Shown: positions 22,033 through 45,594 of the stretch, one piece after another
How the letters are laid out: every line of letters starts with the position of its first letter
Position numbering within the stretch: the first letter of the stretch is position 1
Origin: Mollicutes bacterium
Lineage (GTDB): Bacteria > Bacillota_I > Bacilli_A > RF39 > UBA660
Assembly (NCBI GenBank): GCA_012799635.1
Contig: JAAZKW010000028.1
Coordinates: 1-62,277 of the forward strand
Length of the DNA: 62,277 nucleotides
Reading direction: 5' to 3'
Translations under genes and position numbers: made by a program
The notes under the pieces: model-generated
What the model saw: only the letters and a program-made list of their open reading frames with translations
Databases searched by the model: none
Told to the model about the DNA's origin: nothing

Positions 22033-22067
22033 AAAATTTCTTTATAACGTTTTTAAAAGATTCATAT

Positions 22068-22538
22068 CTACCTATTTTTGATTAATGAATTATATTCTTT
22101 TAAACCATCTTCATAACTAATATAATCCTGCCAACATTTCCATTTCATTATAGGTAATTTTTCCTCAGACCAAGGTAGTTTTGTTATTGAATAAACATCT
22201 CCCAAATAAACAATTGGTTCAACTTTTTCTTTTCTTATCAATACTAATCCATAATCTTTTTTCAAAGCTTCTAAAAATTGTTCATGTGTTTTATTATAAC
22301 TATGATAAGAACCGTTTATAAGTCGTACATAGCCTAATGGAGTAAGTATACTTTCAGGTATGCCATAATAAAACTCTAATCCCATAGCTCCATTATCAAC
22401 AATTTGACTATGACAAGGAGATACTTCATCGGTACTTGGGCTATTGATTTCAAAAGTAACTTGACATTGGTTTTTTATTCTAGCAAAGATGTCTTTTCTT
22501 ACTTTTTCCACATTTGTCCAATACGTCATTTTATCCAT
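22068..22538 (-). CDS. Hypothetical protein (intact copy of duplicated pair)
   Basis: 156 aa; near-identical C-terminus to 23982..24281. Confidence 0.6.
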   Translation of the reverse strand: MDKMTYWTNVEKVRKDIFARIKNQCQVTFEINSPSTDEVSPCHSQIVDNGAMGLEFYYGIPESILTPLGYVRLINGSYHSYNKTHEQFLEALKKDYGLVLIRKEKVEPIVYLGDVYSITKLPWSEEKLPIMKWKCWQDYISYEDGLKEYNSLIKNR

Positions 22539-22583
22539 GGAAAAACCCTCCTTTAAGCGCCTGTTATTTTATATAATAAATTG

Positions 22584-23255
22584 TTATTTATTTGCAAATG
22601 ATCTTACTATATCATCCTTAACATGAATCGTCTCACTTATAAGTTTTGTTTTGATAATCTCTTTTGCTTGTTCATAAAAAACACGCAATAGCTTCGCATT
22701 ATTTTCTGCTTCTAAAAGCTTTTTTAAATATTCTAAGCCCTTTATTTTCTTATCTACTTCATAATTAGAAATACTCTCGATTGCTTCATTAACAAGTTCT
22801 ATTTTATCACTATGAGAAATTAATTCTTCATGATGTTCGTATTTTTCCAAACAATATATACTTTTTTGATTTCCTTCTAAAATCCCTGCTAAAATAAATG
22901 CTAAATAAGGCGGTGTTACTTTTATACCATCAACTCCAATATAGTCATGAAGAAAGCCGTAAATAGTATCACCGGATAAGTGATATATATTTTCTATGTT
23001 TTCAAACATAGGATCCCCATTAGGTAAGCTCGCTCCTGAAATAAATTCTTTTTTTTCTTCATCAAATTCTGCGAAAGAAAAAACTTCATGTTTTTTCCCA
23101 TAAGTTCTATTACTACATTTTCTTACCACTTCATCTAATAATTCTTTTAATTTTTCAGCATCAATTAAAACAGTATAACGACGCTCTATATTATCTTCTT
23201 GGATTATATATTCAATCCCTGTATCTGTATACTTCACAACAAAACCTCCGTTCAA
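22584..23255 (-). CDS. Hypothetical protein, duplicated
   Basis: 223 aa; paralog of 24416..25102. Confidence 0.65.
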   Translation of the reverse strand: MNGGFVVKYTDTGIEYIIQEDNIERRYTVLIDAEKLKELLDEVVRKCSNRTYGKKHEVFSFAEFDEEKKEFISGASLPNGDPMFENIENIYHLSGDTIYGFLHDYIGVDGIKVTPPYLAFILAGILEGNQKSIYCLEKYEHHEELISHSDKIELVNEAIESISNYEVDKKIKGLEYLKKLLEAENNAKLLRVFYEQAKEIIKTKLISETIHVKDDIVRSFANK

Positions 23256-23289
23256 AAGATATTATAACAGTCACATATATCTTTAGTCA

Positions 23290-23385
23290 ATTCATTTATT
23301 CATCTTATTTATAAGTATATTAGCAGTTATATCTCCGGTTACATTTAATGTTGTATATGCCATATCCAATAATTTATATATATCC
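23290..23385 (-). pseudogene. 3' fragment of SLC1-type symporter gene
   Basis: Matches 3' end of 25139..26308 then diverges. Confidence 0.75.
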
Positions 23386-23399
23386 TAATTATAATCTTA

Positions 23400-23985
23400 C
23401 CTATTAATCATCTTTTTTTATCGCTTCATCAAAAGTTAATATTTCATATTCATTTAAATTTATACCACTTTCTTCATATACATCATCAGTATTTATAACT
23501 CTAATATCTTTTTTAATATAACCTAATCTTTTAGCTAAATCATAAATATCTTTAACATTTTTCCTTTCAATTTCAACATATTGGTTTAATTAAAGGCCAT
23601 GAATCTATTTCTATTTGCATATCTTTATAAACATAGCTTATTCTTTTTTTCTCGACCAATTTTTTACGAAAATAACCAAATTCTTCAAGTAAAGAGTTTG
23701 CCATTTCAAAATTATCTACTTTAATTTCGATTTCTTTAACATTTTTTATATCATAATCTTTTAAAGTGCTATATATATATTTAATCTTAAGTTCACATGT
23801 ATCACCATTTTGTCTTAATCTTATCCATTTAAAAAATCTATTTTTAGTATCTTTATTGTTAAGAATATCTATATCTACATTTTTTATATTTTTATAAATA
23901 TAAGCATCTAAATAATCATATCTGGTTATCTTATAGATTATCTTTTTATCTTTTTCATTTATGTTTTTAAAAAATTCATATCTAC
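23400..23985 (-). pseudogene. Frameshifted CYTH-domain gene, C-terminal part
   Basis: ...FFKWIRLRQNGDTCELKIKY...MQIEIDSWPLI then 1-nt shift near 23585 into YVEIERKNVKDIYDLAKRLGY. Confidence 0.6.
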
Positions 23986-24385
23986 CTATTTTTTCTTAAT
24001 GAATTATATTCTTTTAAACCATCTTCATAACTAGTATAATCCTGCCAGCGTTTCCATTTCATTATAGGTAATTTTTCCTCAGACCAAGGTAGTTTTGTTA
24101 TTGAATAAACATCACCCAAATAAACAATTGGTTCAACTTTTTCTTTTCTTATCAATACTAATCCATAATCTTTTTTCAAAGCTTCTAAAAATTGTTCATG
24201 TGTTTCATTATAACTATGATAAGAACCGTTTATAAGTCGTACATAGCCTAATAGTATACTTTCAGATAACTCTAATCCCATAGCTCCATTATCAACAATT
24301 TGACTATGACAAAAAGATACTTCATCAGTACTTGGGCTATTGATTTCAAAAGTAACTTGACATTGGTTTTTTATTCTAGCAAATT
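23982..24385 (-). pseudogene. Decayed copy of 156-aa hypothetical gene (start region and internal codons deleted)
   Basis: Alignment by eye to 22068..22538; lacks the N-terminus/SD seen in copy 1. Confidence 0.65.
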
Positions 24386-24415
24386 TGAATAGCTATTATT
24401 TTATATAATAAATTG

Positions 24416-25102
24416 TTATTTATTTGCAAATGATCTTACTATATCATCCTTAACATGAATCATCTCATTTATAAGTTTTATTTTAATAATCTCTTTTGCT
24501 TGTTCATAAAAAACACGTAATAGCTTCGCATCAAAATATTGCTTTTCTTTTTCTGCTTCCAAAAGTTTTTTTAAATATTCTAAACCCTTTATTTTTTTAT
24601 CTACCTCATAATCATCAATACTCTCGATTGCTTCCTTAACAAGTTCTATTTTATCACTATGAGAAATTAATTCTTCATGACGATCGTATTTTTCCAAATG
24701 ATATATACTTTCTTGGTTCCCTTTTAAAATCCCTGCTAAAATAAATGCTAAATAAGGCGGTGTTACTTTTATACCATCAACTCCAATAGAGTCACAATGA
24801 TAGCTGAAATGATTATTAGAGGTAAAGCGATATATCTTTTCTATGTTTTCAAACATAGGATCCCCATTAGGTAAGCATTCTCCTGAAATAAATTCTTTTT
24901 TTTCTTCATCAAATTCTGCAGAATAAGAAGCTTCATGTCTTTTCCCATGAGTTCTATAACTACATTTTCTTACCACTTCATCTAATAATTCTTTTAATTT
25001 TTCAGCATCAATTAAAACAGTATAACGACGCTCTATATTATCTTTTTGGATTATATATTCAATCCCTGTATCTGTATACTTCACAACAAAACCTCCGTTC
25101 AA
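24416..25102 (-). CDS. Hypothetical protein, duplicated
   Basis: 228 aa; paralog of 22584..23255. Confidence 0.65.
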   Translation of the reverse strand: MNGGFVVKYTDTGIEYIIQKDNIERRYTVLIDAEKLKELLDEVVRKCSYRTHGKRHEASYSAEFDEEKKEFISGECLPNGDPMFENIEKIYRFTSNNHFSYHCDSIGVDGIKVTPPYLAFILAGILKGNQESIYHLEKYDRHEELISHSDKIELVKEAIESIDDYEVDKKIKGLEYLKKLLEAEKEKQYFDAKLLRVFYEQAKEIIKIKLINEMIHVKDDIVRSFANK

Positions 25103-25138
25103 AAGATATTATAACAGTCACATATATCTTTAGTCAAT

Positions 25139-26308
25139 TTATTTATTCATCTTATTTATAAGTATATTAGCAGTTATATCTCCAGTTACATTTAATGTTG
25201 TATATGCCATATCCAATAATTTATATATACCTGAATAAAAACCTATAAAAGATAAAGGTATATTAAAATAAGATAAGTATGTAGCACCAATTACAATACC
25301 ACCGCCGGGTATTCCTGGGGCTGCCATATTAATAAAAGTCGCTACAACAAGCATTAATAAATATGTTGTAAGGGTTATCTTTATTCCAAATAATGTAGCA
25401 TTAAATAAACCTAATAATGCAAAAGATACTGCTCCGCCACACATATGAATAGTGCATCCCAAAGGAACTACTATATCTGTTGTCTTTGAAGGTATATTAA
25501 AGCCTTCTTTACATGTTTTAATTGTATAGGGAAGAGTTGCCATTGAAGAACATGTTGTTAATGTAATAAGCCATACTTTACTAACTTTTTTTATATAAGT
25601 AATAGGATTAATCTTAGCAAAAAACCACACTGGTAAAATCATTATAAAAAACAAAACAATGATACTTGAAAAATATGCAATTCCTATATATTTTAAACCA
25701 TATTTAATAATACTTATCCCATAGGTTGCAACTGTATTTCCAACTAAAGAAAAAACTCCTATTGGTGTCAGAAGAATAATATCTTCCAAAAGTTTATTAA
25801 AAATATTTTTTAATCCCTCTAATAAATCAATTACTTTGTTACCATTTTTAACCTTATCTGCATATATTCCAAAAAACATAGCTAAAATAATACCCGGAAG
25901 AATTAAATTGTTTTGAAAGATATCAATTATATTACTTGGGAATAAATTTGTAACAATATCGGTCATTTTGAAAGATGTTAAAGTTCCATCCCAATCTTTA
26001 AGTTGATAATTAAAACCCTTCGAAGGATTTATTAAAGTTACAATTAATGATGTTATTAAAAAACTCATAATAAACATAACAATAAACAGTACCACCGTTT
26101 TTATTATTAATTTGCTACCTTTTTTAACTGATTTATTTATAGTTATAGAAATAGATGTAAATAAAATTGGAATGATAATAAATTTAAGAAGGTTTATATA
26201 TATGACTCCCAAAAAAGATAACTCTTGCATTAATTTAGGGAAAAACACACCAAATATAATACCTATTATTAAACCTATTATAATAAATATATTAAAATTT
26301 TTTCTCAT
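25139..26308 (-). CDS. Dicarboxylate/amino acid:cation symporter (SLC1 family)
   Basis: Polytopic; TTCSSMATLPYTIKTC, NMAAPGIPGGGIVIGATYL. Confidence 0.85.
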   Translation of the reverse strand: MRKNFNIFIIIGLIIGIIFGVFFPKLMQELSFLGVIYINLLKFIIIPILFTSISITINKSVKKGSKLIIKTVVLFIVMFIMSFLITSLIVTLINPSKGFNYQLKDWDGTLTSFKMTDIVTNLFPSNIIDIFQNNLILPGIILAMFFGIYADKVKNGNKVIDLLEGLKNIFNKLLEDIILLTPIGVFSLVGNTVATYGISIIKYGLKYIGIAYFSSIIVLFFIMILPVWFFAKINPITYIKKVSKVWLITLTTCSSMATLPYTIKTCKEGFNIPSKTTDIVVPLGCTIHMCGGAVSFALLGLFNATLFGIKITLTTYLLMLVVATFINMAAPGIPGGGIVIGATYLSYFNIPLSFIGFYSGIYKLLDMAYTTLNVTGDITANILINKMNK

Positions 26309-32594: not shown

Positions 32595-35417
32595 TTATCT
32601 TCTTTTAATATTATTAACAATTATTTGGTACTTGTCAAACCTTTTGGAAGATTTCCCCTCAATAAATATTATTTCATTTTCTTTTAAATCACTAACTGTT
32701 TCAAACACCTCTGGAAACAAGGTAAGTTCCACTATTCCCGTTTCATCAGAAGCAACCACAAAAGCCATATTATCACCCTTTTTAGTAGTAATTATAGTTA
32801 TTTTCTCTATTAATAAAGCCATCTTAATATTTTTAAATAAATATTTAATAGTATCTTTTGCTTTTACTACTTTGGTATATATACTTACAGGATGATTACC
32901 AAGATAAGTCCCATAATATTTTATTTCATCTTTAAGAAGCGTTTTATCATCATATTCATCTTTTACATCAATAATTGGTTTATCAAAAGAAAGATCTTCT
33001 AAAGAAGCATAATTAAATATTTCATATTTTTTTTCAATTAAAGCTTTATTAGTAATCTTAAAAGAAAAAAATACTGATGATCTTACTAAAATCTCATATA
33101 TATTATCATTAATAATACTTTTATTTTTAATTAAAAAATCATATATATCTAGATATTCTTCTTCTCTATTATTTATTATTTCATTTATAATATTTTCATT
33201 TAATCCTTTAATCATATTAAAAGGAAGTAATAAATAATTGTTTTTAAATTGAAAATCATTATGCGATTTATTAATATTAGGTTTTAATATCTTAATACCG
33301 CTTTTCTTAAGTTCATTTAAATAATATTTTCTTTTTAAATCATCTTTAGTTTCACTTAAAAGACTTATATAAAAATATACAGGATAATTTGCTTTCAGGT
33401 ATGCAAGACGATATGATATAAGTGAATATGATACTGAATGAGCTTTATTAAAACCATATTCAGCAAATCTTTTAATTTGATTAAATAAATCGTTTAAAAA
33501 CTCTTTATCATAACCATTTTTTATCCCTTTAGCAATAAAATTTTCTTCTTCCTTTATAATAATATCTTCTTTTTTCTTAGATATTGCATTTCTGATATTA
33601 TCTGCTTCATATTCAGTATATCCTGCTATTTTTACAAGTATTCTCATAACTTGTTCTTGATAAATAATAACTCCCCAAGTGCTTTTTAAGATATCTTTCA
33701 AGCTATCATGAACATCTATTTTCCCTTTTTCTTTATTATTTACATATAAATCAATTTGATTACTTGGTCCTGGTCTTACTAATGCCATTGCAATAGAAAG
33801 TTCTTCAAAAGAAGACGGTTTTATCTTTATTAAAGTCTTTTTAGCATAATTTGACTCAAATTGAAAAATATCATTTGTTTCACCATTTTTAAACAACTCA
33901 TAAGTTTTTTTATCATCTAAAGGTATATTATCAAAAGAAATATTTGGTATCTTTTCAATAATATTTTTTATTGTAGTTAAATTCTTTAATGCTAAGAAAT
34001 CCATTTTAAGAAGACCTAACTTTTCTAAATAATCCATAGTTATACCAGTTCGATTTATAACATCATCTTTAATTATAGGAATAATATTTTTTAAAGGTAC
34101 TGATGATATAACTACCCCAGCTGCATGAGTAGAAATGTTTTTCTTTAAATTCTCAAGATGCATTGCAACATCATATAATTCATTAAGTTCACTATACATC
34201 CTTAAATATCTATGTACTACATCTTCTTCTTTATTAGTTTTTAAACTTTTTCTATTATCAATACATTTAATAAACTTATTAAATAAATATATATCTATCT
34301 TAAATACTTTTGCTAAATCCCTTAATATTAATCTTGCTTTATAAGTATTAAAGGTAAGTCCTAAAGCAACAAAATCATCCCCATATTTTTCTTTAACATA
34401 GTTTGTTACTTCGCCTCTTTTAGAATCTTCAAAATCAATATCAATATCAGGCATTTTATTTCGATAGGGATTCAAAAATCTTGCAAAAGATAAATCATAT
34501 TCTATAGGGTCAATATCAGTAATTCCAACAGAATAGCTTACTAAGGAACCTGCAGCACTACCTCTTCCAGGACCTACTAAAATATTGTTTTTCTTTGCAT
34601 ATAAAACATAATCATAAACAATTAAAAAGTAATCAACAAAGTTCATTTCTTTAATTATTTTTAATTCTTCTTCTAATCTTTTTTGATATCTTTTATTTAC
34701 TTTATTATTCAATCTTTTCTCAAGACCAGTCTGAGCAAGCTTACTTAAATATATAAATGAATTAATATTCTTTCTATATACTGGAATATATCTTTTATCA
34801 AAAGGAATTTCAATATTAATATGGTTACTAAATTCTAATAAATATTCATAATCATCTTTAGATATACGATCATTTAAATAATCATTATCACTATGTTCAA
34901 AAGATTTACCCAATAATTTTAAATAATCTATATATTTAATATCTTCTTTAAAAAGACATCTTATATTATTAAGATATACTATTTTATCAGTTAGTATTAA
35001 GGCTACTTTCTTTTCATCATTAGTATTATATGAAATATATATATTATCTTTATTTTCAAACTCTTGGTAAAGATTAATTTCTTTATTTGGTAAAACAACT
35101 AAAATATTATCATCTATTATATCTTTTAAAAGAAGACTTTCTTTTTCATAATTAATAGCAATTAATTTTTGATACCCAATATAATTCTTAGCATATAAAT
35201 ATACCGTATGATCTTCTATTTTTATTTCCATGCCTATTAATGGCTTTATATTATTATTTTTACATTTAAGGTAAAATTCAATACTTCCATAAAGTTCATC
35301 ATCACATATTCCACAAATCTTAATATTTTTTTCAATTAAAACTTTAATTAAATCATCAATTTTAATTAAACTCTTAAGAAGGGAATATTCCGTGATAACT
35401 TTAATTGGAATTAACAT
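32595..35417 (-). CDS. dnaE: DNA polymerase III alpha subunit, DnaE type
   Basis: NNILVGPGRGSAAGSLVSYSVGITDIDPIEYDLSFARFLNPYRNKMPDIDIDFED; 940 aa. Confidence 0.95.
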   Translation of the reverse strand: MLIPIKVITEYSLLKSLIKIDDLIKVLIEKNIKICGICDDELYGSIEFYLKCKNNNIKPLIGMEIKIEDHTVYLYAKNYIGYQKLIAINYEKESLLLKDIIDDNILVVLPNKEINLYQEFENKDNIYISYNTNDEKKVALILTDKIVYLNNIRCLFKEDIKYIDYLKLLGKSFEHSDNDYLNDRISKDDYEYLLEFSNHINIEIPFDKRYIPVYRKNINSFIYLSKLAQTGLEKRLNNKVNKRYQKRLEEELKIIKEMNFVDYFLIVYDYVLYAKKNNILVGPGRGSAAGSLVSYSVGITDIDPIEYDLSFARFLNPYRNKMPDIDIDFEDSKRGEVTNYVKEKYGDDFVALGLTFNTYKARLILRDLAKVFKIDIYLFNKFIKCIDNRKSLKTNKEEDVVHRYLRMYSELNELYDVAMHLENLKKNISTHAAGVVISSVPLKNIIPIIKDDVINRTGITMDYLEKLGLLKMDFLALKNLTTIKNIIEKIPNISFDNIPLDDKKTYELFKNGETNDIFQFESNYAKKTLIKIKPSSFEELSIAMALVRPGPSNQIDLYVNNKEKGKIDVHDSLKDILKSTWGVIIYQEQVMRILVKIAGYTEYEADNIRNAISKKKEDIIIKEEENFIAKGIKNGYDKEFLNDLFNQIKRFAEYGFNKAHSVSYSLISYRLAYLKANYPVYFYISLLSETKDDLKRKYYLNELKKSGIKILKPNINKSHNDFQFKNNYLLLPFNMIKGLNENIINEIINNREEEYLDIYDFLIKNKSIINDNIYEILVRSSVFFSFKITNKALIEKKYEIFNYASLEDLSFDKPIIDVKDEYDDKTLLKDEIKYYGTYLGNHPVSIYTKVVKAKDTIKYLFKNIKMALLIEKITIITTKKGDNMAFVVASDETGIVELTLFPEVFETVSDLKENEIIFIEGKSSKRFDKYQIIVNNIKRR

Positions 35418-35456
35418 ATATCATTTACCTCCTTAATAATATTTTATCATATATAA
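35386..35456 (-). repeat. 71-bp direct repeat A (dnaE 5' end/SD)
   Basis: 70/71 identity with 40314..40384. Confidence 0.9.
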
Positions 35457-35487
35457 TACTTATATGTATTAAAAATGAGCTACTCGC

Positions 35488-36045
35488 TCATTTATAATCT
35501 TCCCTAATAATTGAATATGACTCCAAGTTAGCATATTTATTGGTATTCTTATCTATTAATCTATTTCTTAATGTTCCTTCATGTTTCATACCCACTTTTT
35601 CCATTACTTTACCACTTCCTATATTTGTAGGAATAAATTGGGCATATATTGTCTCTACTGGGGTTTCTTCAAATAAATAATTAATAACTGCTCTTAGTGC
35701 TTCTGTTGCATAACCTTTGTTCCACCACAAAGACCCATATGCATAACCTATTTCAACAGTATTGTTTGTTTTATCGCAATTTACAGATGTTATAGTACCA
35801 ATTAATGTGTTCGTTTCTTTTAAAATAACAACCCATCTAAATTTATTGTAGTCTTTATATTCGCGAACCCATTTTTCAATTAAATTTTCTGCAACTTTTA
35901 CATCATCATATTTATTCCAAACTGTATATTTTGATACTTTATTATCTCTTCCCACATTAAGAAACAACTCTGCTGCATCGTTTAATTTTGCCTTTCTTAA
36001 TATTAAATTTTTTGTTTCAATTTTTTTAGTTATCGCTTTCTCCAT
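35488..36045 (-). CDS. RimJ/RimL-like GNAT acetyltransferase
   Basis: VEIGYAYGSLWWNKGYATEALRAVINYLFEE...NIGSGKVMEKVGMKHEGTLRN. Confidence 0.8.
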   Translation of the reverse strand: MEKAITKKIETKNLILRKAKLNDAAELFLNVGRDNKVSKYTVWNKYDDVKVAENLIEKWVREYKDYNKFRWVVILKETNTLIGTITSVNCDKTNNTVEIGYAYGSLWWNKGYATEALRAVINYLFEETPVETIYAQFIPTNIGSGKVMEKVGMKHEGTLRNRLIDKNTNKYANLESYSIIREDYK

Positions 36046-36102: not shown

Positions 36103-37272
36103 TTAATTATTATTATATTCATCTAATAATTCAAGAATTATTTTATTAACCTGCTTTATTTTTACCTGAATATCTTTAATTATATTTTTACCATTAAACA
36201 TTTCTTTGTATTTTTTATTTAATAAATCTATTTCAATTTTACATAAACTATAACTACTAAAATCGTATCCTAATTCATATAATATTATTTCAAATTTAGC
36301 AATTAATGAAAAATATGAGTATATATGTATATATAGTTCTTCTCTTATTCCTAAAATAGCTTTTTTATTTTCATATTCAATAATATCAATAGCATTAATG
36401 GGCACTCCTTTTTTAATGCATATTTTATAAACTAATGCAAAATAACCATAAATTATATCACATTCATGATTCTTAAGCTGTTTTTTTAAGTCTCTAATTA
36501 GGATAACGTCTTTAGTAACACTTGTCTTTTTCTTTATTTTTTTTACAATGTCTATTATTGCACTATTAAAGTCTATTTTACTACAATCAAGCTTTTTTTC
36601 AAGTATCTTAATTTGAGCATTAATATCAAATTCATTATTATCATAAATAGTTTCAAAGCAATTTGTCCACTCATTAAAACCCAACATACTTTTTTCTAAA
36701 TATTTTACTAATTCATCAAAATTTTTCGTTGAATTTAATACAACCATCATTATTTCCTCTGTATTATCTCTACATGAATAATCAAGTACGCCATCTTAAA
36801 AGTGTAAGCTATATTTATTGTTTTTGATATTATCTAAATAATTATTTGATATTATTGGTAAATAATTCGTAATACCGTGTACTCTATCCCTTCCTTTATA
36901 TCCTAAAACATAAGAAATCATATAGGATATTTTATTTTCTAAATTTAATTTTTTTGCAATATCAGAATCACCATAAATAAAACTAATATCAACGTCACTA
37001 AATATTAGATTAGTATTGCGAGCTAAACTACCAGTTAAAAAAATACGCCAATCTTTTATTTTTTCTTGAGGAAAAAAGGAAATTATTTTTTGAATAGTTT
37101 TAATAATAATTTTTTTATGTTTGCTCATAATATATCTCATTTTTTCTTTTGAATAATCATTTAAAACATGTAAATATTCTTCATATAAACTATTGAATTT
37201 TTTTGAATAACTTTTTCTTAATGAATTTATTTTTTTCTGATATTCCCTTTTGCTAATACTTTTATCAACCAA
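36103..37272 (-). pseudogene. Nucleotidyltransferase gene interrupted by an in-frame TAA (two ORFs 37272..36796 and 36750..36103 in same frame)
   Basis: N-terminal GSLARNTNLIFSDVDISF NTase motif; 36798..36796 TAA is the only stop between the ORFs (...SLHF*DGVLDYSCRDNTEEIMMVV...). Confidence 0.55.
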
Positions 37273-37400: not shown

Positions 37401-38441
37401 TTATGTCTTTATTTTATAAATATCTTTTTGAAAAATTAGTTGCTTTTTTAAATATTCGTTTAAAAATTCATAAATATCAATGTATTCTTCTTCTTGTATA
37501 ATTTTGTTATATAATTTTTCTCTACCTATTTTTCTCTTTTTTGCTAAATATTTTAACATTCCTTTATTAAAACTGCTTTCTGATGAAAACCACTTGTTAT
37601 TATAAATAAAATATAATTTCATAAACAAATGATCATATTTAAAAACTTCTTTTTCTAAAACAATGTTTTCTTTATTTTCAATATATGGATGAATTAAATA
37701 AATAACTTTTTTGTGAAAAATATGGGCTAAATAATCTACAATATAAATATTAAATAAATGTTTATTACATATAACTGCAATAATGTTTTCTTCATTAAAT
37801 GTTGTTAAAAATAAACTCCAGAAAAAGTCTATATCTAAGTTGTAATCTTTAAACATAACTCCTGTTTTTCTTGATTTAGAAATTAATAACTCTTGTTTTG
37901 AATAATATTCATTAAATTGTTGAAAATTATTATTATATAATTGAGGAATACATTTTATTTTTTTTATATATCTAGGTGAAATTTTTAGAAATAATCTTTT
38001 TTCTTTTTTTTCTTGGCATCCTTTCTTACATTTCGTACATATATATTTATTATTAATTTTTTTAAATAACTTATTGTTATAATATTTCAATGCTTTTTTA
38101 GGAAAATCTATTAATCCACAATCACACTGTATTATTGTTTCACTTTTTTCAATTATTATTTTTTCATCATATAGTCTTTGAATTTTTTCAATAATAATAT
38201 TAATATTATCATTATCTATAAAATAATCATCGAATGTTAACTGTATTTCGTTTAAAAATTTAATAAATCCATTTGTCTTTTTATTCTTAAAACTATGAAG
38301 TAGATTAATTGATAATATATTTTTTATTTTTAATTTTTCAGAAATTAATTTAGATAAAATAATAGATGTTAGCCTTGCGGTTTTTTCTTTAGTAAATGGT
38401 GCTATAGGGAAATTTGTAACAACATAATTATCTTTTTTCAT
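37401..38441 (-). CDS. Degenerate class I aminoacyl-tRNA synthetase-like (MetRS-like) protein
   Basis: NFPIAPFTKEKTARL at HIGH position, C-x-C..C-x2-C knuckle, KRLFLKIS, LLISKSRKTGV, order as in MetRS core; no HIGH or KMSKS. Confidence 0.5.
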   Translation of the reverse strand: MKKDNYVVTNFPIAPFTKEKTARLTSIILSKLISEKLKIKNILSINLLHSFKNKKTNGFIKFLNEIQLTFDDYFIDNDNINIIIEKIQRLYDEKIIIEKSETIIQCDCGLIDFPKKALKYYNNKLFKKINNKYICTKCKKGCQEKKEKRLFLKISPRYIKKIKCIPQLYNNNFQQFNEYYSKQELLISKSRKTGVMFKDYNLDIDFFWSLFLTTFNEENIIAVICNKHLFNIYIVDYLAHIFHKKVIYLIHPYIENKENIVLEKEVFKYDHLFMKLYFIYNNKWFSSESSFNKGMLKYLAKKRKIGREKLYNKIIQEEEYIDIYEFLNEYLKKQLIFQKDIYKIKT

Positions 38442-39327
38442 TTAAAACTCTCTTCATATTTCGGCATAATATTTTTTCTTTTTCTCCTTGAGTAAAAACA
38501 TTACTTGAAGTAAAAGCATTCAATTCTAAGCTATGTGAAGAAAATGGATAATCCGAACCCCAAACAACTTTGGTAATATCTACATTTTCTAAAATAACAG
38601 TATATAAATCATCTAAACTTGCATATTTCTCTATATCAAAAATAATTGCATTTTTAGGCCTTTTTATATAACGATCATATATTCTTTTAGATGGTGCTAT
38701 ATCAATAATAGTATTATCAAGATGGTTCATTTGTTTTATTGCCGGTATATTTAACGCTGCAAAATGAGCGAGTTGGAAGTAATTTTCATATGATTTAATA
38801 AAGTTTATCATATTACTTGGATTTTGGTTGTCAAAGATACCACAATGAACTAACATAGGAACCTTTCCAACAAAAGATGAAACATCATCAAGATTATATC
38901 CACTTAGACCAGTATACGCTTTAATACCCTTTACTAATTTACCATACTTTTCTAAATAATAATCTATTAACCATTTCATTGAAGTTTTTGTCACAGATAC
39001 TAGCAGATAAAAATATAAATTTTTTTCATATTTTAGCAGTTCAAATAAAATATCATTGTATTTTATGTAAGGGTCAATACCACTATATGTTATTAAACCA
39101 CAATTCATACATTTACATAATATTTCTCCTGGCTTATTGCCATCAAACATTGCAATTCTATGATTTTTATTGTTCTTACAACTAATATCTTCAATATAAG
39201 GGTCAATCATTATTACAGACTTATCAATTCCGTTAATTTTCATTAGTTCTTTAAATTCTTCTAATTTTTGTTTAGATTCTTCAACATTTTTTGTTATTGC
39301 AATATGTGCATGTGAATCTATAATCAT
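38428..39327 (-). CDS. Amidohydrolase (Amidohydro_2-like)
   Basis: MIIDSHAHI, MLVHCG, LAHFAA, VVWGSDYPFSS; overlaps next gene. Confidence 0.8.
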   Translation of the reverse strand: MIIDSHAHIAITKNVEESKQKLEEFKELMKINGIDKSVIMIDPYIEDISCKNNKNHRIAMFDGNKPGEILCKCMNCGLITYSGIDPYIKYNDILFELLKYEKNLYFYLLVSVTKTSMKWLIDYYLEKYGKLVKGIKAYTGLSGYNLDDVSSFVGKVPMLVHCGIFDNQNPSNMINFIKSYENYFQLAHFAALNIPAIKQMNHLDNTIIDIAPSKRIYDRYIKRPKNAIIFDIEKYASLDDLYTVILENVDITKVVWGSDYPFSSHSLELNAFTSSNVFTQGEKEKILCRNMKRVLNEKR

Positions 39328-39339
39328 ATAATAGCCCTC

Positions 39340-40053
39340 CTATTTATTAAATTCTCTTATTCTTTTTTTAGCCAAGGTAGTATGTGCTTTATTTAACCAA
39401 TTATTTCTTAGTCTATATGTGAATTTGTCAGTAATAACTCTCACTATATCCTTATTATTTAAAGTATAAGTCACAGGAACATAATTACCATTAACAACAA
39501 CTCCAACCATAGTATTTCCAATTTCAGAACTAATATAATAAGCAAGTGGCGCAAATATTTCTATTGTTTCAAGCGCATTTTCTTTTTGCTTAATTTCTAA
39601 TTTATATTCTAACGTTCTCATATTATGTAATCTATCAGCAAGTTTTATTATAATTATTCTAACATCATCGGTTATACTCGTTATTATTTTTCTTGTATTA
39701 GCTACGTCTTGATCTTCTTTACACACAAAGTTAACTTTAGATAATTTTCTAGCCCCATCAACTAATAATGCAATATCCTGATTAAAATAATAAACAATGT
39801 CCTCTTTAGTACATTTTGTATCTTCAAAAACATCATGCAATAATCCAGCACATACTGTATCACAATCAGCATGTAAATCAGCAAGTATGAAGGCAACATT
39901 AATTGGATGCGTTATATATTCTTCTCCACTAATTCTAAATTGTCCATCATGATATTTTTTTACAAATTCATAAGCTTTATTTATTATTTCTAATTCTTCT
40001 GGATTATATTCTCTTATTTTATTAAGTAAATCTTTAATAGTTATTTCTTTCAT
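39340..40053 (-). CDS. RelA/SpoT-type HD protein lacking synthetase domain (HD fused to C-terminal TGS-like segment)
   Basis: HDGQFR..YITHP, LLHDVFEDT, KLADRLHNMRTL; then directly GVVVNGNYVPVTYTLNNKDIVRVIT. Confidence 0.75.
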   Translation of the reverse strand: MKEITIKDLLNKIREYNPEELEIINKAYEFVKKYHDGQFRISGEEYITHPINVAFILADLHADCDTVCAGLLHDVFEDTKCTKEDIVYYFNQDIALLVDGARKLSKVNFVCKEDQDVANTRKIITSITDDVRIIIIKLADRLHNMRTLEYKLEIKQKENALETIEIFAPLAYYISSEIGNTMVGVVVNGNYVPVTYTLNNKDIVRVITDKFTYRLRNNWLNKAHTTLAKKRIREFNK

Positions 40054-40220: not shown

Positions 40221-40313
40221 ATATGCTCCTTTTTATATAAATTAAATTCATACTATAACAAAATTTAATAAAAAGCAAGCTTTAAGATGCTGTTTATGTT
40301 GAAAATATATGAT

Positions 40314-40384
40314 TATTCCGTTATAACTTTAATTGGAATTAACATATATCATTTACCTCCTTAATAATATTTTATCATATATAA
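40314..40384 (-). repeat. 71-bp direct repeat B (truncated dnaE 5' end: MLIPIKVITE*)
   Basis: 70/71 identity with 35386..35456. Confidence 0.9.
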
Positions 40385-40410
40385 AAATTTTATAAATATA
40401 AAGTACATCT

Positions 40411-40818: not shown

Positions 40819-41424
40819 TTATAATACAGCTCGTAATCTTACATGTGGGTCTTTATCCCTTATTTTTAACTCACGTTTAACTGTTTTCAATAATAATTCA
40901 AATTCCTGTATCTTATTATTCAAAATTCTAATTTGTATTAAAAGCTCCTTTTCTTCTGCTTTCGACTCTGCACATTCTTTTGAGTTACGTAAAATATCAT
41001 CATAGGAATCTCCGCTGTTAACCTCAAAACGCATATCACATCTTTCACATAAATGTTCACATAAATCATTATATACCTTTTTGCAGTCTTCTAATCGCTT
41101 CTCATATGATTTAATAATATTTAAAATCGTGGCTTTTTCTTCATCCGTTAAAATTCTATCATGATTAACTAGATATACGTTCCCAGTATTTACATCATAT
41201 TCTACAATATTCCCAAGAACAAAGTTGTTTGAACCTAAAGTATTAAAATTAATTTTCTCACAAACTTCTCCATCAAGATCACTAACACTAACAGTACCTA
41301 TAACAAGTCTCAAATTCGAATCATCAAGTTGTTCAATTACACTTTTATTAGCAAATTCAAAATAACTTTCAGGAGTAATTTCCTCGTTATAAGGAATTAA
41401 TCTACTTATTACTCCAATTTTCAT
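40819..41424 (-). CDS. Tandem-array family member 1 (unknown)
   Basis: MKIGVIS start, helical C-terminus; shares promoter/terminator with neighbours. Confidence 0.65.
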   Translation of the reverse strand: MKIGVISRLIPYNEEITPESYFEFANKSVIEQLDDSNLRLVIGTVSVSDLDGEVCEKINFNTLGSNNFVLGNIVEYDVNTGNVYLVNHDRILTDEEKATILNIIKSYEKRLEDCKKVYNDLCEHLCERCDMRFEVNSGDSYDDILRNSKECAESKAEEKELLIQIRILNNKIQEFELLLKTVKRELKIRDKDPHVRLRAVL

Positions 41425-41477
41425 ATTTTCCTCCCTATAAATATTTTAGCATATATAATATTTTATTCAAATAAAAA

Positions 41478-41506
41478 AGATGTCTTCACTATTAATGAAA
41501 ACATCT
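41478..41506 (-). terminator. Array-unit terminator
   Basis: Near-identical hairpin copy. Confidence 0.7.
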
Positions 41507-41548
41507 CTTAAAAACTTTTAGAAAAAAAATGTTATTTATCTGGTTTTC

Positions 41549-42190
41549 TTATTTGCCATAATGTTTAAACTTTTTATAAAAAGAATCTAACCTAATCCTA
41601 GCTGTTGTTTTTTCTTCCTCTGTTTCAGCTCTTTTTTCTAAAATTGTTGCAAGTTTTATTAATAACACTTCTTCTATTTCTCTTATTTTATAATCCAGCA
41701 ACTTATTAAACTCAAGATCATCATCTCTTTTTGCTTTTAAAGTTTTATATTTTTCCCAATTATTATTAACATCTTCAGGTGTCACCCCCAAATCTACATG
41801 ATAAAGCTCAATGTCATCATCTACTTTACGCCTCAAGCCCTTATAAGTGCGTAACATTTTTTGATACACTTCAATTAAAACTAAAACCTGCTTTTTTTCA
41901 TCATCTGTAAAAGGTCTGAAGTCTCCATAACCATATACATCCTTTGGGCTTTCATCAAGTGAAAATACTTCGCCAGTTTCTTCGTTAAATTTTATAACTT
42001 CGCCAAAGTAATGAGGTTTTGAAAAAAATTTTTCATATACTATTCCAGTATTTAAATTTCCTTTGCTATCAACAAAACTAATAATTAACTCCATAGGCAA
42101 ATGTCCATATGAGTCAGATATGCATTTAAAATATTCGTCAACAGTAGGATCCCATGCATAGGATATTCCGCTTATAACTCCAATTTTCAT
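41549..42190 (-). CDS. Tandem-array family member 2 (unknown)
   Basis: MKIGVISGISY...; paralog of next genes. Confidence 0.7.
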   Translation of the reverse strand: MKIGVISGISYAWDPTVDEYFKCISDSYGHLPMELIISFVDSKGNLNTGIVYEKFFSKPHYFGEVIKFNEETGEVFSLDESPKDVYGYGDFRPFTDDEKKQVLVLIEVYQKMLRTYKGLRRKVDDDIELYHVDLGVTPEDVNNNWEKYKTLKAKRDDDLEFNKLLDYKIREIEEVLLIKLATILEKRAETEEEKTTARIRLDSFYKKFKHYGK

Positions 42191-42242
42191 ATTTTCCTCC
42201 TTGCAAACATTATAGCATACATAATATTTTATTTAAATAAAA

Positions 42243-42271
42243 AGATGTCTTCACTATTAATGAAAACATCT
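42243..42271 (-). terminator. Array-unit terminator
   Basis: Near-identical hairpin copy. Confidence 0.7.
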
Positions 42272-42285
42272 CTTAAAAACTTTAT

Positions 42286-42927
42286 TTATCTAATCCTAGC
42301 CGCTGGTCTTGATGTCCCTATCTTGATTCTTTGTTCTGAAACTGTTATAACTCTTTCTAATAACAACTCTATTTCTCTTATTTTATAATCCAGCATTTTA
42401 TTAAAAGCAATATTATCTGATATTTCTTTTTTTGTTCTTTTAAATTTTTCCCAGTTATTATTGATATCTTTCTTTGTAACCCCAAAATTTACGTGATGAA
42501 TTCTATCGTCAACAGGTATTATACGTTTAGTTTTCCTATAATCAATTAACAATTTTTGATACGCTTGAATTAAAACTAAAACCTGCTTTATTTCATCATC
42601 TGTAAAATTCCTTAAGTTTTCTGGATTACTATAAATATCATCAACGTTCATTGGTTCTTCATCAAGTGACAATACTTCACCAGTTTTTTTGTCATATAAT
42701 ATAACTTCGCCAAAGAAATGACGTTCTGAAGAAAAATTTTTAGTAAATATTTCTGGTTGTAGTCTTCCTATTATATTAACACAACTAATAATTAGTTCAT
42801 CATAACAAATCCTAGGTGTTAAAGGCTTAATCATTTCTTCATAATATGTTTGTTCATCAATAACCTTTCCAACACAATCCCAGTACCACAAGTACCGGTT
42901 GAATCCGCTTATAACTCCAATTTTCAT
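42286..42927 (-). CDS. Tandem-array family member 3 (unknown)
   Basis: MKIGVISGFNRYLWYWDCVG... Confidence 0.7.
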   Translation of the reverse strand: MKIGVISGFNRYLWYWDCVGKVIDEQTYYEEMIKPLTPRICYDELIISCVNIIGRLQPEIFTKNFSSERHFFGEVILYDKKTGEVLSLDEEPMNVDDIYSNPENLRNFTDDEIKQVLVLIQAYQKLLIDYRKTKRIIPVDDRIHHVNFGVTKKDINNNWEKFKRTKKEISDNIAFNKMLDYKIREIELLLERVITVSEQRIKIGTSRPAARIR

Positions 42928-42980
42928 ATTTTCCTCCCTGCAAATATTATAGCATACATAATATTTTATTTAAATAAAAA

Positions 42981-43009
42981 AGATGTCTTCACTATTAATG
43001 AAAACATCT
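42981..43009 (-). terminator. Array-unit terminator
   Basis: Near-identical hairpin copy. Confidence 0.7.
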
Positions 43010-43022
43010 CCTAAAAAACTTT

Positions 43023-43673
43023 TCAAAGAGAATTAAATCTAATCCTAGCTATAGAGCTTGTGTTCTCAATTCTTCTTTTTGAAATTGTTATAACTCTTTT
43101 TAATAACAACTTTATTTCTCTTATTTTATAATCCAGCATTTTATTATATTCAAGATCATTTTCTCTTTGTGCTTTTAACTGCTTGTGTTTTTTCCAGTTA
43201 TTATCAATATCTCTCTTTTTCCCCCCAAAATCTGCGAAATGAATTTTACTGTCATCAAATATTATACGCTTGCTTTTTTCATAATTACTTAACCTTTCTT
43301 TATACGCTTGAATTAAAACTACAACCTGCGCTAATTCAACATCTGTAAAATTAATTAATTTTTCTGGATGACAGTCAATATCATCAAGGTTCATTGGTTC
43401 TTCATCAAGTGACAATACTTCACCAGTTTCTTTGTCATATAATATAACTTCGCCAAAAAAATGACGTTTTGAAGAAAAGTTTTTAGTAAGTATTTGTGTT
43501 TGTAGGTTTCCTTTTCCATCAACATAACTAATCATTAGATGATCATAATGAAGCTCAGGTGTTAAAGGCTCAATCATTTTTTCATAATATGTTTGTTCAT
43601 CAATAATAACCCCTCCAATACTACCTCCAAACCACCAGTACCGACATAACCCGCTTATAACTCCAATTTCCAT
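43023..43673 (-). CDS. Tandem-array family member 4 (unknown)
   Basis: MEIGVISGLCRYWWFGG...; start placed at SD-preceded ATG 43673. Confidence 0.7.
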   Translation of the reverse strand: MEIGVISGLCRYWWFGGSIGGVIIDEQTYYEKMIEPLTPELHYDHLMISYVDGKGNLQTQILTKNFSSKRHFFGEVILYDKETGEVLSLDEEPMNLDDIDCHPEKLINFTDVELAQVVVLIQAYKERLSNYEKSKRIIFDDSKIHFADFGGKKRDIDNNWKKHKQLKAQRENDLEYNKMLDYKIREIKLLLKRVITISKRRIENTSSIARIRFNSL

Positions 43674-43766
43674 ATTTTCCTCCCTACAAATATTATAGCA
43701 TACATAATATTTAATTGACAACTCCTTATTATTTTGATAAACTTATACCGACTAGGAGGTATATTC

Positions 43767-43957: not shown

Positions 43958-45448
43958 TTATTTTGATGAATATATTCTTGTTCTAATAGTTTTTGAAGCT
44001 TCAATATCTTGATATTTAAAATTAGTAATTTCATTATGAAGAGCAAATCTTACTGTATCATCACTTCTAAGTATTTTATTAAATGGTACTATTTTATTAT
44101 TTACAAGAACAAATGATGTATGCCTAAAAGCATCCTCTCCTATGGCAGCTAAATAATCGATAATATTGGAATTAACTGGTAAATCAACAACATCTCCATT
44201 CATATCATTATATACATATATTCTACCCATAAAAAGTTCTTGATATAATTGTTCTACATACATTTGGTTATCACCATAATATTCATCAATATCTTTTAAA
44301 GTTTGAAAAAAACTATAATTTTCTTGCAATGTTTTTTGAATACTTTCTTTATTATTATTTCCATCATAATATCTAATGATACCCCTAAGATTATTTTGAT
44401 CCATTTCATAAGTTTTTATTCTGGCTTGGACAAGATGATTACATGGCCCAAATAAAGTTGTATGAATTGCAGAATACATATTAGTTTTAGGATCACGAAT
44501 ATGGTCTTTAATTAGATTTTTTTTATGCTTATATAACTGATGAATCTCGCCTAAAGTAACATAACAATCCCCAATACTATTAACTAATATCTTTAAAGCT
44601 ATTAAATCATTGATTTCTTGTAATTCTTTACCCTGACGTTGTAGTTCATAAATGTTACTAACATTTTTAAAGCGTTCTATTATCTTAAAATTCATTTTTA
44701 TATTATATAACACTTCTGCATGCTGTAATCTTTCAGAAATAGCACATGTCATTGTTTTTAAAATATGATCATGTTTTTCATTAAGACTATTTAATTTAGT
44801 TGTAATAGATAAAAACTTATTAGGATTTAAATATTTAAAAGCAAGGTCATTTAATTCATCGCGAATATAATATGCTCCGATAAAATTTGCAAGAGGAACA
44901 TATATTTCTTTTGTCTCTTCGGCTTTAAGAATTTGTTTTTCAGATGGCATATATTTTAAAGTTAACATGTTATGAAGTCTGTCTGCAAGTTTAACGATTA
45001 TAACCCTAGCATCTTTATCAATATATCGCATCAGTTTTCTTAAATTAGCATAATCAAGATCCTTCATTGACTTATATTCTTCATTTGGAAACTTTGATAC
45101 GCCTTCAACTAAAAGATATATTTCTTCACCAAGACTTTCTCCGAAAACTTCAATAATATTATCTTTAGTACAACAAGTATCTTCGATAACATCATGCAAA
45201 AGACCAGCACAAAGCATTGTTGTATCTGCTTTCATATGAGCTAAAATAATAGCTACACAAAGAGGATGCGTTATATATGGAGTTCCTTCTTTTCGTTTTT
45301 GTCCTTCATGGAATTTTTGTGCCAATAAATATGCCTTATTAACATTAGTTTTAGTTTCCAAATTATAAGAATTTACTTTTTCATTAAGTATTTTAAATAA
45401 TTTTTCTTCACTAACTATTTCGATAATCAGTTCATATAAATTTTTCAC
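43958..45448 (-). CDS. RelA/SpoT homolog: HD domain intact, synthetase domain degenerate
   Basis: LLHDVIEDT, KLADRLHNMLTLKY; NMYSAIHTTLFGP, HLVQARIKTYEMDQ. GTG start with AAAGGAG at 45448 preferred. Confidence 0.75.
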   Translation of the reverse strand: MKNLYELIIEIVSEEKLFKILNEKVNSYNLETKTNVNKAYLLAQKFHEGQKRKEGTPYITHPLCVAIILAHMKADTTMLCAGLLHDVIEDTCCTKDNIIEVFGESLGEEIYLLVEGVSKFPNEEYKSMKDLDYANLRKLMRYIDKDARVIIVKLADRLHNMLTLKYMPSEKQILKAEETKEIYVPLANFIGAYYIRDELNDLAFKYLNPNKFLSITTKLNSLNEKHDHILKTMTCAISERLQHAEVLYNIKMNFKIIERFKNVSNIYELQRQGKELQEINDLIALKILVNSIGDCYVTLGEIHQLYKHKKNLIKDHIRDPKTNMYSAIHTTLFGPCNHLVQARIKTYEMDQNNLRGIIRYYDGNNNKESIQKTLQENYSFFQTLKDIDEYYGDNQMYVEQLYQELFMGRIYVYNDMNGDVVDLPVNSNIIDYLAAIGEDAFRHTSFVLVNNKIVPFNKILRSDDTVRFALHNEITNFKYQDIEASKTIRTRIYSSK

Positions 45449-45594
45449 ATTAACTCCTTTCTTAAAATATAAAAAACAACCAATATGTGATTGCTTTGTA
45501 ACTATCGTTTTTGCCAAAATCCCCACATATCCTGTTAATTCATACTATCATTTTATATTATTTAATATAAAAATGCAAGAATTTAAAAAAGTAT

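What the first reader, a model, noticed from the sequence alone, without database searches (positions are those of the whole stretch)
37401..39327. Degenerate MetRS-like protein coupled to an amidohydrolase
The 346-aa product follows the order of a class I synthetase core (Rossmann start NFPIAPF, Cys knuckle, KRLFLKIS, LLISKSRKTG, WxxF) but HIGH is replaced by KEKT-like residues and KMSKS by FSSES-like residues. The gene overlaps an amidohydrolase gene by 14 nt. A non-tRNA-charging aaRS paralog paired with a hydrolase suggests an unexplored pathway (aminoacyl transfer, amide turnover or regulation).
Basis: partly seen in the sequence, partly recalled or inferred. Interest (0 to 1): 0.65.

Follow-up and report, generated by a model that had tools for sequence, protein, structure and literature searches.

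The report
Pseudo-methionyl-tRNA synthetase beside a nucleotidyltransferase
A gut bacterium carries a protein shaped like methionyl-tRNA synthetase that has lost both class I signature motifs for handling ATP; its relatives nearly always sit beside a nucleotidyltransferase gene (once fused to it) in scattered, probably mobile gene islands, which points to an unstudied, probably regulatory or resistance-type system rather than a synthetase-amidohydrolase pathway.

Summary
The ORF at 37401-38441(-) is a real, conserved protein with a MetRS-type class I fold. AlphaFold gives pLDDT 90.5. The top 27 PDB fold hits are all MetRS. Profile comparison with MetRS gives 92%, with clean controls. No sequence library recognises it. 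All 34 aligned homologues lack both HIGH histidines, and the KMSKS segment is deleted rather than replaced by FSSES. Homologues are under purifying selection (dN/dS about 0.10-0.18 in most pairs) and share their own invariant residues plus a four-Cys zinc site. This is therefore a repurposed family, not a decaying synthetase. The amidohydrolase partnership fails: none of 37 homologous loci and none of 79 relatives has that gene. The true partner is a pol-beta-type nucleotidyltransferase: adjacent in 27 of 37 loci, replaced by a nucleotidyltransferase-NUDIX protein in 3, fused in 1. An S51-type serine hydrolase usually follows (27 of 37). In the window that nucleotidyltransferase has an in-frame stop, the S51 gene is missing, and a RelA-type gene has an internal deletion. 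The block lies between two copies of the dnaE 5' end. Best mechanism (inferred): the pseudo-synthetase is a ligand-binding sensor or adaptor for an AMP-transferring enzyme. The window copy is probably a partly decayed instance.

The parts
37401..38441 (-). MetRS-fold pseudo-synthetase, 346 aa
   Evidence: ORF; 34-member family; AlphaFold pLDDT 90.5 and MetRS fold hits; hhalign to MetRS 92%
38373..38384 (-). position of the HIGH motif, here KTAR (residues 20-23)
   Evidence: column composition: no His at either HIGH position in 34 homologues; 0 of 34 HIGH-like
38016..38126 (-). CP-type zinc site, C106-x-C108 ... C135-x2-C138 (C142 in 30 of 34)
   Evidence: four Cys invariant in 34 of 34; aligned with the MetRS knuckle
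37818..37880 (-). family-specific conserved block S188-x2-R191-x-T193-G194 ... N201-x-D203-x-D205-F206-x-W208
   Evidence: invariant or nearly invariant in 34 sequences
36796..37272 (-). N-terminal part of the partner nucleotidyltransferase (GS...SDxD motif), ends at an in-frame TAA (36796-36798)
   Evidence: PF01909 E 5e-6; same reading frame continues as the next part
36103..36750 (-). C-terminal part of the same nucleotidyltransferase, after the in-frame stop
   Evidence: reading-frame translation; clusters with intact nucleotidyltransferases
35488..36045 (-). GNAT acetyltransferase, cassette gene
   Evidence: PF13302 E 3e-30; homologue lies between nucleotidyltransferase and pseudo-synthetase in L047
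38428..39327 (-). amidohydrolase-like gene, found only at this locus
   Evidence: PF04909 E 4e-5, below cut-off; no homologue in 37 loci or 79 relatives
39340..40053 (-). short RelA derivative with the synthetase domain deleted (HD hydrolase + TGS left)
   Evidence: 70% and 54% identity to the two ends of the 480-aa RelA beside the operon in L052; the middle is missing
35383..35465 (-). 5' end and leader of the intact dnaE gene, right copy of the flanking direct repeat
   Evidence: 94% identity over 83 nt with 40311-40393
40311..40393 (-). orphan duplicate of the dnaE leader and first codons, left copy of the flanking repeat

Best explanation
Shown: 37401-38441 encodes a member of an unnamed MetRS-fold family that has lost HIGH and KMSKS but keeps a zinc site and its own invariant residues. 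It belongs to a sporadic operon, nucleotidyltransferase - pseudo-synthetase - S51 hydrolase, with variable extras (GNAT, NUDIX, HAD, radical SAM, short RelA). Inferred mechanism: the pseudo-synthetase no longer activates an amino acid with ATP. It binds a small ligand (an amino acid or a nucleotide or adenylate conjugate) and acts as the sensor or substrate-presenting subunit of the nucleotidyltransferase. The nucleotidyltransferase then transfers AMP to a protein or metabolite, and the S51 hydrolase and the accessory enzymes process or reverse the product. In the window the nucleotidyltransferase is interrupted, the S51 gene is gone and RelA is truncated, so this copy is probably a partly decayed island; the amidohydrolase is an incidental neighbour or a local replacement part.
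For: Fold: pLDDT 90.5, PDB top 27 all MetRS. Loss of HIGH in 34 of 34 and loss of KMSKS. dN/dS 0.10-0.18 in seven of eight relative pairs. Nucleotidyltransferase adjacent in 27 of 37 loci in three different gene orders, S51 in 27 of 37. A nucleotidyltransferase-NUDIX protein replaces it in the clostridial loci L055, L058 and L059, and the two are fused in L064 (742 aa). The nucleotidyltransferase model (pLDDT 93) has GlnE and DrrA, both protein AMP-transferases, and the MNT AMPylating antitoxin among its best fold hits. S51 keeps its GxSAG and DVH motifs.
Against: No ligand, target or reaction is shown. The nucleotidyltransferase fold hits beyond the top one are weak (GlnE E 2e-3, TM about 0.4). 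The accessory genes vary so much that a biosynthetic or resistance role fits about as well. Some loci, such as L056 and L063, show no nucleotidyltransferase neighbour (L063 and several others are near contig ends).
Confidence: 0.4

Rival explanations
1. The operon makes or tailors a small molecule: the MetRS-fold protein is a ligase or transferase that uses a substrate activated by the nucleotidyltransferase, in the way that hydrazine synthetases use a MetRS-like domain in natural-product clusters; GNAT, NUDIX, radical SAM and the S51 hydrolase are tailoring enzymes.
For: The only non-MetRS entry among the 28 best fold hits is the PyrN MetRS-like domain. MetRS-like domains are established in hydrazine biosynthesis (PMC11705231; PMC10445470). 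Tailoring-type enzymes recur.
Against: Hydrazine synthetases adenylate the amino acid with ATP, whereas HIGH and KMSKS are gone here. No cupin is among the recurrent partners, and no carrier protein, NRPS or transporter was apparent in the neighbour lists read by eye.
Confidence: 0.22
2. The islands give protection against inhibitors of an aminoacyl-tRNA synthetase, MetRS in particular: the pseudo-synthetase is a decoy that binds the inhibitor, the nucleotidyltransferase, GNAT or S51 enzymes inactivate it, and some islands add an insensitive second MetRS.
For: A divergent full-length second MetRS lies directly downstream in L060, whose genome has another MetRS, and a broken related one lies near L039 (40-46% identity to each other, about 26-30% to canonical MetRS over most of their length). 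Extra aaRS genes are a known route to antibiotic resistance (PMC9437257).
Against: Only 2 of 37 loci have it. No T-box or SAM element lies next to the operon. No inhibitor is known for these hosts.
Confidence: 0.13
3. A toxin-antitoxin or anti-phage system: the nucleotidyltransferase is a toxin or an AMPylating antitoxin and the pseudo-synthetase (with RelA in some) is its partner.
For: Patchy distribution (12 of 291 family genomes). A serine recombinase beside it in L028 and L051-L053. Weak PADLOC hits of the nucleotidyltransferase to PDC-S09 and of the short RelA to PDC-S33. MNT antitoxins among the fold hits.
Against: Three-gene core plus metabolic extras; partner is not HEPN; no match in the phage or plasmid collections and none in viral contigs.
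Confidence: 0.15
4. The window copy is simply a decaying remnant with no present function; the 346-aa ORF is intact only by chance.
For: In-frame TAA in the nucleotidyltransferase, RelA internally deleted, no S51 gene, and loss at conserved positions (G22A, P27I, N336I).
Against: The pseudo-synthetase ORF is full length and keeps every residue that is invariant in its 33 relatives. The stop in the nucleotidyltransferase could be a metagenome assembly error.
Confidence: 0.3
5. One reading: aaRS-like protein and amidohydrolase form a functional pair.
For: 14-nt overlap, same strand.
Against: The pair occurs nowhere else: 0 of 37 loci, 0 of 79 relatives.
Confidence: 0.04

Closest known systems
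Methionyl-tRNA synthetase (type 1 and 2, class I aaRS)
   Same: Rossmann core, single zinc knuckle in the connective region, ISR-type strand, overall fold
   Different: HIGH and KMSKS absent, sequence identity about 10% in the structural alignments, shorter C-terminal region without a full anticodon-binding domain, separate canonical MetRS in the genome
MetRS-like domain of hydrazine synthetases (PyrN, Spb40, AzsN)
   Same: MetRS fold used outside translation
   Different: those adenylate an amino acid with ATP and are joined to a cupin; here the signature motifs are gone and the partner is a nucleotidyltransferase
HisZ, regulatory HisRS paralogue of HisG
   Same: a synthetase-fold protein without adenylation activity that senses an amino acid for a partner enzyme (PMC9437257); analogy only
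   Different: class II fold, partner HisG, different pathway
Glutamine synthetase adenylyltransferase (GlnE) and MNT-type nucleotidyltransferases
   Same: pol-beta nucleotidyltransferase core with GS...SDxD, fold hits of the partner gene
   Different: low TM-scores, no GlnE domain repeat, partner is MetRS-fold rather than glutamine synthetase or HEPN

Membership tests
Methionyl-tRNA synthetase | MetRS-type class I fold | tested here: met
   AlphaFold + Foldseek: top 27 PDB hits MetRS, E down to 3e-12, TMq about 0.65; hhalign 92%
Methionyl-tRNA synthetase | HIGH motif | tested here: not met
   0 of 34 homologues
Methionyl-tRNA synthetase | KMSKS motif | tested here: not met
   segment deleted in the profile alignment; only two chance KxSS strings far downstream
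Methionyl-tRNA synthetase | zinc knuckle in the connective peptide | tested here: met
   C106, C108, C135, C138 invariant
Methionyl-tRNA synthetase | anticodon-binding helical domain | tested here: inconclusive
   about 85 C-terminal residues in short helices, shorter than the domain in MetRS; homology not resolved
Methionyl-tRNA synthetase | charges tRNA-Met | not testable with these tools
   a separate canonical MetRS exists in the genome
MetRS/cupin hydrazine synthetase | cupin domain fused or adjacent | tested here: not met
   recurrent partners are nucleotidyltransferase, S51, GNAT, NUDIX, HAD, radical SAM, RelA
MetRS/cupin hydrazine synthetase | ATP-dependent amino acid adenylation (HIGH/KMSKS) | tested here: not met
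   motifs absent; the activity itself was not assayed
Type VII MNT/HEPN toxin-antitoxin | nucleotidyltransferase with GS...SDxD | tested here: met
   PF01909, invariant G76 S77 S87 D88 D90
Type VII MNT/HEPN toxin-antitoxin | HEPN partner | tested here: not met
   partner is MetRS fold
GlnE-type protein AMP-transferase | GlnE-like fold of the nucleotidyltransferase | tested here: inconclusive
   GlnE E 2e-3, TM about 0.4; DrrA E 3.5e-6
GlnE-type protein AMP-transferase | transfers AMP to a protein | not testable with these tools
   needs biochemistry

The most novel reading that the evidence does not exclude
A bacterial pseudo-synthetase/AMP-transferase two-part sensor: a MetRS fold stripped of its signature motifs reads an amino acid, an aminoacyl-adenylate or a tRNA acceptor end and switches a protein-modifying nucleotidyltransferase, in islands that sometimes also carry a RelA-type enzyme. 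In logic this would resemble eukaryotic Gcn2, where a degenerate synthetase domain controls a kinase (analogy from general knowledge).
Probability: 0.15. Interest if true: 0.8.

Novelty: new variant of a known kind. Interest (0 to 1): 0.52.

Why it matters
aaRS paralogues with lost chemistry are known (HisZ and others), but a conserved MetRS-fold pseudo-synthetase tied to a nucleotidyltransferase, once by gene fusion, and carried in sporadic, apparently mobile islands of gut bacteria matched no Pfam or NCBIfam family and no paper found in the library searched. It offers a concrete, testable pair for the question of what synthetase folds do outside translation, and it gives annotators a named partner in place of the incidental amidohydrolase.

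Tried and rejected
Sequence libraries (Pfam, NCBIfam, PDB sequences) with the single protein, with 4 and with 34 homologues: no aaRS or other credible match. Viral contigs, phages and plasmids: no relatives. Conserved aaRS-like/amidohydrolase pair: rejected. S51 remnant in the window: none found. T-box or SAM regulation: no such element next to the operon (one SAM riboswitch in L037 lies about 5 kb upstream). Host-essential MetRS: rejected, a canonical MetRS exists. Transfer between Alphaproteobacteria and Gastranaerophilales (L056, L057): the stretches are 94-98% identical including flanks, so one bin is probably contaminated. Residue-level placement of the methionine-pocket Trp was attempted from the profile alignment and is ambiguous, so no claim is made. 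Literature searches on this gene combination found nothing relevant.

Full report
What was checked first. The ORF at 37401-38441(-) (346 aa) and its 14-nt overlap with the amidohydrolase-like ORF 38428-39327(-) are as described. No Pfam, NCBIfam or PDB sequence matched the protein, not even with profiles of 4 or 34 homologues.

It is a real family. Relatives at 28-29% identity appeared in 3 of the 97 other genomes of one draw, 12 of 291 genomes of the same GTDB family matched a profile, some of them weakly or over short stretches, and 37 loci came from a scan of 84,980 species genomes. Most are gut Bacilli metagenome bins, with several Clostridia, a Lachnospiraceae and a Microgenomates bin. 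The distribution is patchy: none of the other same-genus genomes tested, 2 others of 395 in a class-wide draw and no other in a phylum-wide draw. In pairs of close relatives dN/dS is 0.10-0.18 for the pseudo-synthetase in seven of eight pairs (the eighth, 0.34, is a nearly identical pair), so the proteins are maintained.

Fold. AlphaFold on the 34-sequence alignment gave mean pLDDT 90.5 and pTM 0.89. Foldseek against the PDB returned MetRS for ranks 1-27 (best 1a8h, E 3.2e-12, TMq 0.65), then the MetRS-like domain of PyrN; among predicted viral proteins MetRS again came first. Profile-profile comparison with MetRS proteins fetched from relatives gave 92-93% probability, against 0.2% for reversed MetRS and 0.3% for the nucleotidyltransferase profile.

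What is lost and kept. At the HIGH position the window has KTAR and the family has mostly N-I-G-M; no member has either histidine. The KMSKS stretch falls in a gap of the alignment, so 'FSSES' is not its replacement. Invariant instead are P12, N46, D76, C106, C108, C135, C138, L150, P166, S188, D203, D205 and W208. The four cysteines correspond to the MetRS connective-peptide knuckle. Loss of both ATP-handling motifs in every member with strong conservation elsewhere argues for a changed function rather than decay. In solved MetRS these motifs bind the ATP phosphates (PMC9071491).

Neighbourhood. Only the window has the amidohydrolase. The recurring neighbour is a pol-beta nucleotidyltransferase of about 380-410 aa: 27 of 37 loci, in the orders NT-aaRS-S51, aaRS-NT-S51 and aaRS-S51-NT, replaced by an NT-NUDIX protein in L055, L058 and L059, and fused to the pseudo-synthetase in L064 (742 aa). 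Several of the other loci end at contig edges (L057, L061) or are cut by insertions (L060). An S51-type hydrolase with GxSAG and DVH motifs accompanies it in 27 of 37. Extras are GNAT, NUDIX, HAD, a radical SAM protein and a short RelA. Serine recombinases lie next to L028 and L051-L053. The nucleotidyltransferase model (pLDDT 93.2) is nearest in fold to the AMP-transferases DrrA and GlnE and to MNT; these matches are weak beyond the first.

The window copy. The nucleotidyltransferase reading frame 37272-36103 is whole except for one TAA at 36796-36798. The GNAT at 35488-36045 is homologous to the one in L047. The HD/TGS gene 39340-40053 is the short RelA found beside the operon in L052 (70% identity) with its synthetase middle missing; the genome has a separate 703-aa RelA and a canonical MetRS. 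No S51 gene was found in the window. The block is bracketed by two copies, 94% identical over 83 nt, of the dnaE leader and first codons (40311-40393 and 35383-35465). In same-genus genomes the gene upstream of dnaE differs, being a RelA-type gene in several, so the flanks suggest an insertion, but no clean empty site was found and the mechanism is open. In L041 pieces of a spoVS-like gene flank the operon in the same way.

How it most likely works. Shown: fold, motif loss, purifying selection, linkage and fusion with a nucleotidyltransferase. Inferred: the pseudo-synthetase binds a ligand and steers or presents substrate to an AMP-transferring partner. The precedent for a synthetase fold without adenylation acting as a sensor is HisZ (PMC9437257). 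Rivals that remain open are a biosynthetic role in the style of hydrazine synthetases (PMC11705231), protection against aaRS inhibitors (a second, divergent MetRS lies beside L060 and a broken one near L039), and a toxin-antitoxin or defence role (weak PADLOC signals). The present copy may be a partly decayed island.

Verdict. The find is a new, uncatalogued family of a known kind (synthetase-fold proteins outside translation) with an unusual and well-supported partner; function is untested.

Noticed in passing
window 35383-35465 and 40311-40393: The dnaE leader and first codons are duplicated on either side of the block (94% over 83 nt), suggesting an insertion that rebuilt the 5' end of dnaE.
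   Followed up: partly
L041 4890-5099, 8933-9294, 11478-11803: Three partial copies of a spoVS-like gene flank and divide the island in another genome, a similar flanking duplication at a different gene.
   Followed up: partly
window 40819-43721: Four tandem paralogues beginning MKIGVIS (201-232 aa) with repeated intergenic stretches and no Pfam match for those tested.
   Followed up: no
window 22049-23382 and 23963-25229: A tandem duplication of about 1.3 kb at 92-93% identity.
   Followed up: no
window 43958-45526: A second, divergent 522-aa RelA/SpoT-like gene (HD, synthetase, TGS) besides the genome's 703-aa one.
   Followed up: partly
own genome G000:C15:9556-9726: A 75-aa open frame matching only the N-terminus of MetRS, perhaps another duplicated gene start.
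   Followed up: no
L060 7905-9581: A divergent second MetRS (558 aa) directly after the pseudo-synthetase; the genome has another MetRS on a different contig.
   Followed up: partly
L056 and L057: Nearly identical stretches (94-98%) binned as Alphaproteobacteria and as Gastranaerophilales: one bin is probably contaminated.
   Followed up: yes
L055, L058, L059: Clostridial version with GNAT, an NT-NUDIX protein and a conserved 356-359-aa protein of unknown family (no Pfam match) before the pseudo-synthetase.
   Followed up: partly
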